Positions 34,276 through 39,351 of a stretch of 40,234 nucleotides of DNA are shown in pieces (the stretch's first letter is position 1; each line of letters begins with the position of its first letter). Below the pieces are notes generated by a model. The model ran no database searches and was not told the DNA's origin. It worked only from the letters and a program-made list of their open reading frames with translations. Source of the DNA: Smithella sp. (GTDB taxonomy: Bacteria > Desulfobacterota > Syntrophia > Syntrophales > Smithellaceae); the NCBI GenBank assembly GCA_017993615.1, contig JAGOMJ010000003.1, forward strand, positions 1 through 40,234, written 5' to 3'. Made by a program: the position numbers and the translations under genes.

Positions 34276-34965
34276 TCACCGGATGGTTACAGAAGGAATC
34301 TGCTGCTCAAGTTGTTTTTTAATTTTTCGCAGTTTCTCTTCCGAAAAAGATTTTTCCTTCGCGAACTTTTTATCCAGTGTCTTCTTCGCCATAAAATTCT
34401 GCAGCACGTAATGACCGGCGCCGTTGATCATTTTTCCGATCTGCAAGATATCGTTTTCATCGAGCTGAGATTCCACAATCGTTGTGCGGAATTCATAGGG
34501 TATCTTTGCGTTTAAAACCAGCCGGATGCTTTCCTGAATAGCATCCTGATTCACATTGGCCTTGACAATGTCCCTGTACTTGTCTAGAGGCGCCTTGACA
34601 TCCATGGCGATGAAATCCAGCATGTTGTCGGCAATGAGGGTTTTGAGAACATTCGGCACAGAGCCGTTGGTATCCAGTTTAACCGCAAATCCTATTTTTT
34701 TGATCTGCCTGATGAAAGAGATCACATTATCCTGAATGGTCGGTTCGCCCCCGCAAATCGATACTGCGTCAAGTTTTCCTTTTCGCGATTCAAGAAAATC
34801 AATCACCTCACTGACTTTGATAGGTGTGCGAAATAAATCGGGATTGACCAATTCGGGATTATGGCAATAGGGACATTTGAAATTACATCCCTGGGTGAAT
34901 ATAATTGCGGAAATATACCCCGGATAATCAATAAGGGACACTCTCTGCAAACCGCCGATCTTCAT
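34276..34965 (-). CDS. nrdG: Anaerobic ribonucleotide reductase activating protein (radical SAM)
   Basis: 229 residues from the second of two adjacent ATGs, where GAGAGG has a better spacing. The radical-SAM triad CNFKCPYC and the following CGGEPT are visible. It installs the glycyl radical on NrdD using SAM and reduced Fe-S cluster. At 229 residues it is the longer pflA-like NrdG class. It is 71 bp downstream of nrdD on the same strand and would share its NrdR-controlled promoter. Confidence 0.95.
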   Translation of the reverse strand: MKIGGLQRVSLIDYPGYISAIIFTQGCNFKCPYCHNPELVNPDLFRTPIKVSEVIDFLESRKGKLDAVSICGGEPTIQDNVISFIRQIKKIGFAVKLDTNGSVPNVLKTLIADNMLDFIAMDVKAPLDKYRDIVKANVNQDAIQESIRLVLNAKIPYEFRTTIVESQLDENDILQIGKMINGAGHYVLQNFMAKKTLDKKFAKEKSFSEEKLRKIKKQLEQQIPSVTIR

Positions 34966-35036
34966 CATACGCCTCTCATAGATTAAAAAAACAAACGCGC
35001 CGCCGCGTCTGATGATTCTAGACTCTCATGATCCGT

Positions 35037-37124
35037 TTATTTGAATTTGAATTCCTGGCGCAAGTCAAACTCTTCCTGCTTGCCTTTATTCCACTGCTTG
35101 ACCGGCCTTAAGTAACCGACGACGCGGGAATAGACTTCACAATCATCCGCGCAGGTGGGACACTTCTCCTGTTCGCCTTTAATGTATCCATGAGACGGAC
35201 AGACGCTGAATGTGGGAGTGAAGGTGATGTACGGCAGATGATAATTGAAACAAATCTTCTGAACCAGTTTCTTGACGGATTGAGGATCGTCAATTCTTTC
35301 GCCGGCAAATATGTGAAACACCGTGCCGCCGGTATATTTGACCTGAATTTCATCCTGCAAATCCAGCGCTTCAAAGATATCGTCGGTATAATCCACCGGC
35401 AACTGGGTGGAATTGGTGTAAAACGGTTCCGCCTTTTTCGATTTGCCTTCGCTGGCCGTAATAATATCCGTGAACTTCTCTTTATCAATTTTCGCCAACC
35501 GGTACGACGTACCCTCTGCCGGCGTCGATTCCAGATTATAATTATTACCGGTTTCTTTCTGGAAACTGATCAATTTGTTTCGCATGAAATCCAAAACCTG
35601 CTTGGTGAATACCTGTCCCTTATCCGTCGCAACGTTCACGCCCAGCAGATTCAGACAAGCCTCGTTCATGCCGACCAGTCCGATCGTGGAGAAATGATTC
35701 TTCCAGTACTCGCCGAACCGTTCTTTCACTCCGCGCAGATAATACTTCGTATAGGGATAAAGATTTCCGTACGTGAACTTCTCCAGCACCTTTCTCTTGG
35801 TCTCCAGACTTTCCTTCGCCAGTTCCATCAGATGCTCCAGACGCGTCAAAAAATCCTTTTTGGATTTTGAAAGATAAGCAATCCGCGGCATGTTTATCGT
35901 AATGACACCGATAGATCCGGTCAGAGGATTGGAGCCGAACAAACCGCCGCCTCTCATTTCCAGCTCGCGGTTGTCGATTCTCAGGCGGCAGCACATGCTG
36001 CGGGCGTCTTCAGGATTCATGTCCGAATTAATAAAATTGGAAAAATAGGGAACGCCGTACTTGGCTGTCATTTCCCAGAGATCCTGCAAGTTGGGATCGT
36101 CCCAGTTAAAGTCCTTGGTAACGTTGTAGGTGGGAATTGGAAATGTAAACACCCTCCCCTTGGCGTCGCCTTCCGCCATCACCTGCAAAAAAGCCTTATT
36201 GAAAAGATTCATTTCTTCCTGAAATTCTCTGTAGGTCTCTTTCTGCGGCTTTCCGCCTATGATTACATTCTGGTCGGCGTAGTATTTCGGCACTGTTACA
36301 TCCAGGGTGACATTTGTAAAAGGCGTTTGAAATCCAACCCTTGTCGGCACATTAATATTGAAAATAAATTCCTGAAGGGCCTGTTTTATTTCTTTCATAG
36401 ACAAATTATCGTAGCGGATGAATGGAGCAAGCAAGGTATCAAAATTGGAAAAGGCCTGAGCGCCGGCGGCTTCGCCCTGCAACGTATAAAAGAAATTCAC
36501 CACCTGTCCCAGCGCGCTGCGCAAGTGATTCGCCGGTTTGCTCTCCACTTTTCCGGACACGCCTTGAAATCCCTGCAGCAGCAGATCATAAAGATCCCAC
36601 CCCACGCAATAAACGGACAGCAGACTCAAATCGTGAATGTGAAAATCGCCTTCCGTATGCGCTTTGTGAATTTCCGGCGTGTAAATTTCATTGAGCCAGT
36701 AAACCTTGCTGACTTCCGAAGAAATATAATTATTCAATCCCTGCAGGGAGTAATCCATGTTGCTGTTTTCATTGATCTTCCAGTCAAGCTTCTTCAGGTA
36801 TTGATCGACGAGATCAACTTCCATTCGATTGGCGATATCTCTCAAACGGGAGTGCTGATCTCGATAAATGATGTACGCCTTTGCTGTCTTGCGGTACGGA
36901 GAGCTCAGCAGAACTTCTTCAACAACATCCTGAATTTCTTCTACGGACAGGATTTTGCTGTCGAAGAGTTTCTCGGCCAGATTCAGGACTTTGATCGTTA
37001 ATTTACGCGCCTCTTTGATGTCAAAATCGCCTGTGGCATTTCCGGCCTTGGCAATGGCATTGGTAATTTTTTCCGCGTTAAATTTAACCAGTCGCCCGTC
37101 TCTTTTTCTAATTTTAAGATTCAT
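35037..37124 (-). CDS. nrdD: Anaerobic ribonucleoside-triphosphate reductase
   Basis: 695 residues, class III reductase, making dNTPs without oxygen. An ATP-cone (3-90: KIRKRDGRLVKFNAEKI) provides allosteric control. The C-terminal domain has CPSH (642-645), CPTC (655-658) and Cys662 for zinc, and the glycyl radical Gly670 in SRVVGYLRP. The first zinc pair is Cys-x-x-His rather than Cys-x-x-Cys, a variant seen in part of the family. nrdG follows. Upstream are two NrdR-type boxes over the promoter, so repression when dATP is plentiful is expected. Confidence 0.98.
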   Translation of the reverse strand: MNLKIRKRDGRLVKFNAEKITNAIAKAGNATGDFDIKEARKLTIKVLNLAEKLFDSKILSVEEIQDVVEEVLLSSPYRKTAKAYIIYRDQHSRLRDIANRMEVDLVDQYLKKLDWKINENSNMDYSLQGLNNYISSEVSKVYWLNEIYTPEIHKAHTEGDFHIHDLSLLSVYCVGWDLYDLLLQGFQGVSGKVESKPANHLRSALGQVVNFFYTLQGEAAGAQAFSNFDTLLAPFIRYDNLSMKEIKQALQEFIFNINVPTRVGFQTPFTNVTLDVTVPKYYADQNVIIGGKPQKETYREFQEEMNLFNKAFLQVMAEGDAKGRVFTFPIPTYNVTKDFNWDDPNLQDLWEMTAKYGVPYFSNFINSDMNPEDARSMCCRLRIDNRELEMRGGGLFGSNPLTGSIGVITINMPRIAYLSKSKKDFLTRLEHLMELAKESLETKRKVLEKFTYGNLYPYTKYYLRGVKERFGEYWKNHFSTIGLVGMNEACLNLLGVNVATDKGQVFTKQVLDFMRNKLISFQKETGNNYNLESTPAEGTSYRLAKIDKEKFTDIITASEGKSKKAEPFYTNSTQLPVDYTDDIFEALDLQDEIQVKYTGGTVFHIFAGERIDDPQSVKKLVQKICFNYHLPYITFTPTFSVCPSHGYIKGEQEKCPTCADDCEVYSRVVGYLRPVKQWNKGKQEEFDLRQEFKFK

Positions 37125-37174: not shown

Positions 37175-37190
37175 GCGCTATATATTGGGG
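37175..37190 (-). promoter_or_regulatory. NrdR box 1 (downstream box)
   Basis: Core CTATATATTG (37178-37187) fits the NrdR consensus core CWATATATWG at every position. It would lie just after the predicted transcription start of nrdD, around +4 to +19. Confidence 0.8.
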
Positions 37191-37199
37191 TTGAAAAGG

Positions 37200-37228
37200 A
37201 TAGTACCACTATATATAGTAATTTTCAA
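37200..37228 (-). promoter_or_regulatory. Sigma-70-type promoter for nrdDG
   Basis: Minus strand TTGAAA (37223-37228), a 17-bp spacer and TACTAT (37200-37205), about 75 bp before the nrdD ATG. The spacer holds the second NrdR box, which would block polymerase. Confidence 0.6.
37206..37221 (-). promoter_or_regulatory. NrdR box 2 (promoter-spacer box)
   Basis: Perfect palindrome ACTATATATAGT within the 16-bp box (core CTATATATAG at 37209-37218). Its centre is 31 bp from the centre of box 1, three helical turns, as in known tandem NrdR sites. Confidence 0.85.
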
Positions 37229-37317: not shown

Positions 37318-39351
37318 TTAAATCTTGTTGTATTCGGAAAAGATCATGGAGAAAACGGCCCTCCCCTGTGTCGAGGACCTCAAATCGGTGGAATACCCGA
37401 ACATGGCCTTCAAGGGAACCTTCGCCTTAATTTCGCTGACCGTTCCTTTGGGATTAACGGCCTGAATTTCACCCTTCCGGGCATTAATGTCGCCGATCAC
37501 ATCTCCCATGAACTCGCTGGGCGTTATCACATCGACCATCATAATCGGTTCAAGCATGATGGGCTCCGCCTGACCGCAGCCGTCGCGAAATGCGGTTGAA
37601 GCGGCTATTTTATACCCCTGCGCTGAAGATTCGCCCTCACGGAAAGAACCGCCGATAATCGCGACTTCCGTATCCATGACAGGGTAACCATTTAACACGC
37701 CGTTCATCATTGCTTCCCGGATGCCCTCCTCGATGACTTCATGGAAATCCTGAGGAATGACGCTATCGTCAAGTTTTATGATCACGTCATTTCCCGAACC
37801 TCTCTTGCGCGGGGACAGGGCAATCCGGACGTGACCGAAATGCTTCTTTTCGCCAAGTTCTTTTTCAAATATACCTTCGATTTCCACTTTCTTCTGGATG
37901 GTTTCGCGGTAGACAACCCTGGGCCGGCCCACATTCACATGGCAGTTGAATTCCCGCAGCAAACGGTCAACAATAATTTCCAGATGCAGTTCCCCCATGC
38001 CGGAAATGATCGTCTGGGCGGTTTCATCTTCGTATTTCACCTTCAACGTCGGATCCTCTTCCACCAGCTTATCCAGCGCCGCCGTCAGTTTTTCCTGATC
38101 GGCTGGTGTTTTGGCTTCAATGGCCTGACTGATGACCGGTTCATAAAATTCAATCAGTTCCAGTAAAATCGGCTTCTGCTCCGCGCAAAGCGTATCGCCG
38201 GTGGTAGTGGATTTCAATCCCAGAACGGCAATGATATCTCCTGCGGAGGCCGAGTCTATCCTTTCACGTTTGTTGGCGTGCATGCGTAAAAGGCGGGCTA
38301 TCTTTTCCCGCCGTTTTTTTATCGGATTATAGATTTCGTTATTGACCTGAATTTTTCCGGAATAAATTCTCAGATAGGTGAGCTTTCTTCCCTCGTCCAT
38401 CATAATTTTGAACGCGAGCGCTGCCAAAGGGTCCTTCTCGGAACTTCGTCTGATCTCTTCTTCTTTCGTTACCGGATTCATTCCTTTGACGGGCGGAATA
38501 TCTTCAGGAGACGGCAGATAGTTGATAATGGCATCCAGAACGGGTTGTATCCCTTTGTTGCGCAGGGCTGAGCCGCACAAGACCGGAACAATTTTCAGAG
38601 ATATCGTCGCTTTTCTCAGCGCCTCTTCTATCTCAGCAATGGTAATTTCTTCACCGCCCAGGTACTTATCGGCAAGGCTGTCGTCAACCTCGGCAAGCGT
38701 TTCGATCATTTTATCGCGCTGCAACTTCACGTGATCGGCAAATTCCGACGGCACGTCCTGCTTAGACATTTCCGACCCGGATGTCGAATCGTTCCAGACG
38801 ATCATTTTCTGATTAATCAGATCCAGCACGCCACGAAAGTTATCTTCACTGCCGGCGGGAATTTGAATGGCGACGGGCAGAGAGGAAAAACGTTCCCGCA
38901 TCATTCCAATCACATTAAAATAATCGGCTCCCACTCGGTCCATTTTGTTAATAAACGCGATTTTCGGAACACCGTATTTGTCAGCCTGGTGCCAGACGGT
39001 TTCGGATTGCGGTTCGACACCGCCCACCGCGCAGAAGACGACCACGGCCCCGTCCAGCACGCGCAATGAACGTTCCACTTCTATGGTAAAATCCACATGC
39101 CCCGGTGTATCGATGACATGAATGTCATGATTGCGCCAGACACAGGTCGTCACGGCCGATGTTATGGTGATGCCTCTTTCCTGCTCCTGCGGCATCCAGT
39201 CCATTACCGCTTCACCGTCATGCACCTCGCCCATCTTGTAGGATTTGCCGGTATAGTAAAGGATTCTTTCCGTAACCGTTGTCTTTCCGGCGTCAATGTG
39301 TGCGACAATACCGATATTGCGCGTCCGGGCTATTTTTGATTTGGATGCCAT
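37318..39351 (-). CDS. fusA: Elongation factor G family GTPase
   Basis: 677 residues with complete G motifs: AHIDAGKTT (G1, about 17-25), DTPGHVDF (G3), NKMDRVG (G4), and all five EF-G domains to the C-terminal [13 protein letters not shown]. It moves tRNAs and mRNA on the ribosome. It is not in a str operon here (no rpsL, rpsG or tuf beside it), so it may be a second EF-G paralogue, as found in many bacteria, possibly one specialised in translocation or recycling. Which copy it is cannot be decided from this window. It is 9 bp after the GerMN gene. Confidence 0.95.

What the first reader, a model, noticed from the sequence alone, without database searches (positions are those of the whole stretch)
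37175..37228. Tandem NrdR boxes 31 bp apart on the nrdDG promoter
Both cores match CWATATATWG fully, their centres are three helical turns apart, one fills the 17-bp -35/-10 spacer and the other sits just after the start. This is the expected geometry for ATP/dATP-responsive repression of ribonucleotide reductase. No nrdR gene is in the window.
Basis: partly seen in the sequence, partly recalled or inferred. Interest (0 to 1): 0.6.

Follow-up and report, generated by a model that had tools for sequence, protein, structure and literature searches.

The report
NrdR operator pair at nrdDG promoter
Two short matching DNA sites in front of the genes for the oxygen-free DNA-building-block enzyme are almost certainly the docking sites of the well-known repressor NrdR; the same switch controls this bacterium's other such enzyme, so the finding is real but ordinary.

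Summary
Two exact CWATATATWG cores lie at 37178-37187 and 37209-37218, 31 bp apart, in the 193-bp gap before nrdD-nrdG (minus strand). The upstream core sits inside the 17-bp spacer of TTGAAA-N17-TACTAT; the other lies just past the predicted start. None of 50,000 dinucleotide shuffles of the gap gave two cores. The genome (Syntrophales, Smithella group) has one nrdR, on another contig, with the zinc cysteines and nearly all reported DNA-contact residues. A second exact core pair, 32 bp apart in the same promoter position, precedes its only full-length class II reductase gene, nrdJ. All 29 related nrdD promoters and all 26 nrdJ promoters examined keep the pair at 31 or 32 bp. Published work shows a dATP/ATP-loaded NrdR tetramer bridging two boxes three helical turns apart, and E. 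coli nrdDG has the same box separation. This is a new instance of a known operator; binding was not tested.

Noticed in passing, and more unusual: a second NrdD-like gene outside this regulon. It has Lys instead of the radical-bearing Gly, lacks the finger-loop cysteine pair, and directly follows a SAMHD1-like HD gene. It is conserved across Smithella relatives.

The parts
37209..37218 (-). NrdR box 1 core (upstream box), CTATATATAG, inside the -35/-10 spacer
   Evidence: exact consensus match; conserved at this position in all 29 nrdD promoters of relatives, often as CTATATGTAG; 95% mean column identity
37178..37187 (-). NrdR box 2 core (downstream box), CAATATATAG on the minus strand, just after the predicted start
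   Evidence: exact consensus match; conserved in all 29 promoters; 97% mean column identity
37223..37228 (-). -35 element TTGAAA of the nrdDG promoter (predicted)
   Evidence: TTGA(A/T)A in the same position in nearly all orthologous promoters
37200..37205 (-). -10 element TACTAT with preceding TGG (predicted extended -10)
   Evidence: consensus TGGTATTAT in relatives
35037..37124 (-). nrdD, class III (anaerobic) ribonucleoside-triphosphate reductase, 695 aa, with N-terminal ATP-cone and intact glycyl-radical motif RVVGYL
   Evidence: NF006126 1097.6 bits, PF13597, PF03477; motif seen
34276..34968 (-). nrdG, radical-SAM activase of NrdD (NrdG2 type), 230 aa
   Evidence: TIGR02495 217.7 bits over cut-off 131.15

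Best explanation
The two sites are one NrdR operator on the nrdDG promoter. When dATP builds up, NrdR loaded with dATP and ATP forms a tetramer. Its two zinc-ribbon pairs hold the two boxes three helical turns apart, bend the DNA and exclude RNA polymerase, because one box fills the -35/-10 spacer and the other lies just past the start. When dATP falls, ATP-loaded NrdR oligomerises into a form that cannot bind and nrdDG is transcribed. The same NrdR acts at a matching operator on nrdJ, so both reductases are set by one dNTP signal. Shown here: the boxes, geometry, conservation, genes, nrdR and the second operator. Inferred from published work on other bacteria: tetramer binding, nucleotide control and repression.
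For: Exact box pair, 31 bp apart, on a predicted promoter. Correct downstream genes. One nrdR in the genome with C3/C6/C31/C34, D15, R17, R26-29 and R37, aligning almost end to end with NrdR chains of solved structures; those residues are the reported zinc ligands and DNA contacts. Second exact pair, 32 bp apart, before nrdJ. The pair is present in 29 of 29 nrdD and 26 of 26 nrdJ promoters at 31 or 32 bp. The boxes are 95-97% conserved, against 73% in the spacer, 76% upstream and 57% downstream. nrdR is found in 49 of 51 family genomes. Published spacing optimum of 15-17 bp between boxes, and E. coli nrdDG with 15 bp (PMC12051234, PMC12176259). Tetramer structure on two boxes three turns apart (PMC9110341).
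Against: No binding, start-site or expression data exist for this organism. In many relatives the upstream box is CTATATGTAG, one base off the core consensus. nrdD lies 193 bp behind fusA on the same strand, with no clear terminator between them (the only terminator-like match, lies inside the end of fusA), so some nrdDG transcription may bypass this promoter.
Confidence: 0.95

Rival explanations
1. The cores are chance AT-rich palindromes in an AT-rich intergenic region and have no regulator.
For: The gap is 71% AT, and 8 of the 12 exact cores in the genome are single sites not at reductase genes, close to the reversed-pattern control of 6.
Against: No two-core shuffle in 50,000. The pair is kept in 29/29 orthologous promoters with a fixed 31-32 bp spacing while the flanks diverge. 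An independent pair precedes nrdJ.
Confidence: 0.01
2. The sites bind a different regulator that recognises a similar AT-rich palindrome, such as an anaerobic or iron regulator acting on nrdDG.
For: Class III reductase genes are often also controlled by oxygen-responsive regulators in other bacteria (general knowledge, not tested here).
Against: The spacing, sequence, position and the shared occurrence at both class III and class II reductases match NrdR specifically, and nrdR is conserved in the same genomes.
Confidence: 0.03
3. NrdR does bind, but nrdDG expression comes largely from read-through of fusA, so the operator acts as a roadblock or fine tuner rather than the main switch.
For: fusA (37318-39351) and nrdD are on the same strand 193 bp apart, with no good terminator in the gap.
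Against: A good, conserved promoter sits exactly under the boxes.
Confidence: 0.1

Closest known systems
NrdR operator of Escherichia coli nrdDG and nrdHIEF (PMC12176259)
   Same: Two boxes with 15 bp between them upstream of nrdDG; Zn-ribbon/ATP-cone repressor; dATP plus ATP or ADP needed for binding
   Different: The second reductase here is class II nrdJ rather than class I nrdAB/nrdHIEF; binding not measured
NrdR-nrdRJ operator of Streptomyces coelicolor (7P3F; PMC9110341)
   Same: Box pair about three helical turns apart on a class II reductase promoter, with the same conserved C-G pairs flanking the AT core
   Different: In Streptomyces the operator serves nrdRJ, with nrdR beside nrdJ; here nrdR sits in a glyA-deaminase-nrdR-rib cluster on another contig, and the nrdJ operator is separate
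Synthetic NrdR box-spacing series (PMC12051234)
   Same: The 31- and 32-bp centre distances here (15- and 16-bp spacers) fall in the best-binding class
   Different: No four-turn (25-26 bp) spacers as described in that paper for some Bacillota promoters

Membership tests
NrdR operator (paired NrdR boxes) | Two palindromic boxes with core CWATATATWG | tested here: met
   two exact matches
NrdR operator (paired NrdR boxes) | Centres an integral number of helical turns apart (about 31-32 bp) | tested here: met
   31 bp here; 31-32 bp in all orthologues; optimum per PMC12051234
NrdR operator (paired NrdR boxes) | Overlaps the promoter of a ribonucleotide reductase operon | tested here: met
   nrdD-nrdG downstream; predicted -35/-10 flank box 1
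NrdR operator (paired NrdR boxes) | nrdR with Zn-ribbon and ATP-cone present in the genome | tested here: met
   L007:5956-6417(-), PF22811 + PF03477, TIGR00244
NrdR operator (paired NrdR boxes) | Other reductase genes of the genome carry the same operator | tested here: met
   nrdJ pair at L006:5812 and 5844
NrdR operator (paired NrdR boxes) | Bound by NrdR in the presence of dATP plus ATP | not testable with these tools
   needs purified protein
Class III ribonucleotide reductase (window nrdD) | NRDD domain, glycyl-radical motif, Cys pair, ATP-cone and an NrdG activase next door | tested here: met
Class III ribonucleotide reductase (second NrdD-like protein, L034:1001-3061) | Glycyl-radical glycine | tested here: not met
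   Lys at that position in this protein and in all 20 family relatives aligned
Class III ribonucleotide reductase (second NrdD-like protein, L034:1001-3061) | Finger-loop cysteine pair | tested here: not met
   loop shortened and without the Cys pair in this protein (near relatives)

The most novel reading that the evidence does not exclude
NrdR in this lineage controls only the radical-competent reductases (nrdDG, nrdJ). A second, conserved NrdD-like protein has lost the glycyl-radical glycine and the finger-loop cysteines. It escapes NrdR control and has become a non-catalytic, nucleotide-binding partner or sensor of the SAMHD1-like HD phosphohydrolase encoded just upstream.
Probability: 0.35. 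Interest if true: 0.65.

Novelty: new member of a known kind. Interest (0 to 1): 0.15.

Why it matters
It confirms that the NrdR switch extends, with the same strict helical spacing, to uncultured syntrophic Smithella-type bacteria, and that it couples their class III and class II reductases. That is useful for annotation but unsurprising. The unexpected part is what the regulon leaves out: a conserved NrdD-like protein that should be unable to form a glycyl radical, paired with a probable dNTP hydrolase.

Tried and rejected
Chance origin was tested with intergenic and whole-window shuffles and a reversed-pattern control, and rejected. The other eight exact cores in the genome were located: they are single sites, not at reductase genes. 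Four further paired matches in family genomes were inspected: one lies inside a protein-coding ORF (L020), one in the gap before a short ORF resembling ribosomal protein L31 with 30-bp spacing or less (L028), one at a contig end (L029), and one near an ORF resembling an old-yellow-type reductase but not in its promoter (L032). None adds a clear new NrdR target. An NrdR box pair upstream of the second NrdD-like/HD operon was sought and not found in this genome or in 55 relatives. Literature searches for a glycyl-less NrdD paralogue or a NrdD-HD dNTPase pair found nothing, but coverage is open-access only. No structure was predicted.

Full report
The observation. The gap between fusA (37318-39351, minus strand) and nrdD (35037-37124, minus strand) is 193 bp and 29% GC. 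It holds two exact copies of the NrdR core CWATATATWG, at 37178-37187 and 37209-37218, which are the only exact copies in the window. They are 31 bp apart. Read on the minus strand, TTGAAA (37228-37223), 17 bp and TACTAT (37205-37200) form a promoter with a TGG extended -10; the first core lies in the spacer, and the second would lie at about +7 to +16 (the start is inferred). The genes are nrdD with an ATP-cone (NF006126, 1097.6 bits) and nrdG (TIGR02495, 217.7 bits).

Chance. In 50,000 dinucleotide-preserving shuffles of the gap, at least one core appeared 159 times and two never; in 300 shuffles of the window there were on average 0.09 exact cores and no pair. In the 2.52-Mb genome there are 12 exact cores against 6 for the reversed pattern, and 4 of the 12 are the two pairs at nrdD and nrdJ. 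The other eight are single sites and not at reductase genes.

The regulator. The genome has one nrdR, on contig C64 (L007:5956-6417, minus; 153 aa; TIGR00244 199.6 bits over a cut-off of 124.65; PF22811 and PF03477). Its sequence has Cys3, Cys6, Cys31, Cys34, Asp15, Arg17, Arg26-29 and Arg37. These are the zinc ligands (PMC12176259) and DNA-contact residues (PMC9110341) reported for studied NrdRs; Arg12 is Lys here. It aligns over residues 1-145 with NrdR chains of solved structures. nrdR lies in a cluster with glyA, a deoxycytidylate-deaminase-like gene and riboflavin genes. It is present in 49 of 51 genomes of the family.

The regulon. The only full-length class II/I-type reductase gene of the genome, nrdJ (L006:5883-8129; NF006417, 1282.3 bits), carries its own exact pair at L006:5812 and 5844, 32 bp apart, with TTGACT just upstream of the first core. 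Across the family, all 29 nrdD loci with upstream sequence and all 26 nrdJ loci with a 5' end have the pair, at 31 bp (24 and 17 loci) or 32 bp (5 and 9 loci), just after a TTGA- or TTGC-type -35. The nrdD pairs have at most 3 mismatches in total, the nrdJ pairs at most 4; the weakest pairs are recognised by position as much as by sequence. In 24 gap-free nrdD promoters the boxes average 95% and 97% column identity, against 73% in the spacer, 76% upstream and 57% downstream. This is a conserved operator.

Mechanism. Published work shows that dATP/ATP-loaded NrdR forms a tetramer whose zinc-ribbon pairs kink two boxes about three turns apart, while ATP-loaded NrdR forms non-binding oligomers (PMC9110341; PMC12176259). 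Binding is best with 15-17 bp between the boxes (PMC12051234), and E. coli nrdDG has 15 bp, as here when 16-bp boxes are counted. I therefore take this to be an NrdR operator that shuts the nrdDG promoter by steric exclusion when dATP is high. Steps shown here: boxes, spacing, promoter overlap, conservation, regulator gene, second target. Steps inferred: binding, nucleotide response, repression. A contribution of fusA read-through to nrdDG is not excluded.

Organism. The nearest named relatives of a second NrdD-like gene of this genome are Smithella and other Syntrophaceae/Smithellaceae genomes, so the window comes from a Smithella-like member of the Syntrophales (inference).

A side observation. 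The genome has a second NrdD-like gene (L034:1001-3061, 686 aa; PF13597 377 bits; TIGR02487 317.6 bits, just under its cut-off of 326.35) starting 1 bp after an HD-domain gene (L034:3063-4490). The HD protein resembles SAMHD1-type phosphohydrolases in the PDB. The NrdD-like protein has Lys at the glycyl-radical position, as do all 20 family relatives aligned, where the window's NrdD has RVVGYL. Its finger loop is shortened and without the Cys pair, and its ATP-cone is below the Pfam cut-off. Some family relatives with Lys do keep Cys residues in that loop, so loss of the loop cysteines is less uniform than loss of the Gly. In a wider named set of 73, the glycyl position is Lys in 28, Gln in 17, Arg in 5, Leu or Asn in 2 and Gly in 21. 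Of those lacking Gly whose upstream sequence is held, 46 of 49 have the HD gene next to them, against 11 of 20 of those with Gly. No NrdR box pair precedes the HD gene in this genome or in 55 relatives. It is widespread in the order. The simplest reading is a reductase paralogue that has lost radical chemistry and works with a dNTP hydrolase. I found no description of it in the searches made, which cover open-access papers only.

Verdict. The feature is a textbook NrdR operator in a little-studied lineage: a new member of a known kind, of low interest by itself.

Noticed in passing
L034:1001-3061(-) and L034:3063-4490(-) (own genome, contig C40); relatives L103-L122, L123-L202: A second, conserved NrdD-like protein with Lys (in other Syntrophales Gln, Arg or Gly) at the glycyl-radical position and, in this genome, no finger-loop cysteine pair; it is encoded 1 bp after a SAMHD1-like HD phosphohydrolase gene and has no NrdR boxes. 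It looks like a conserved radical-less reductase paralogue tied to dNTP hydrolysis.
   Followed up: partly
L196:2974-7172: In a Margulisiibacteriota genome two NrdD-like genes of this second type lie in tandem, with abutting ends, and no HD gene was found upstream.
   Followed up: no
G000:C95:3-191 (L094): A 63-codon nrdJ fragment at a contig end, 84% identical to the intact nrdJ: a second copy, strain variant or contaminant contig.
   Followed up: no
L029:1500-1582 and L032:382-423: NrdR-like core pairs, 31 and 32 bp apart, in two family genomes but not visibly at a reductase gene; the first is at a contig end.
   Followed up: partly
L007:5956-8207(-): nrdR lies in an apparent cluster glyA - deoxycytidylate-deaminase-like gene - nrdR - riboflavin synthesis genes, linking dNTP and one-carbon functions.
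   Followed up: partly
window 37318-37366: No convincing terminator between fusA and nrdD on the minus strand; the only terminator-like match lies within the end of fusA.
   Followed up: no
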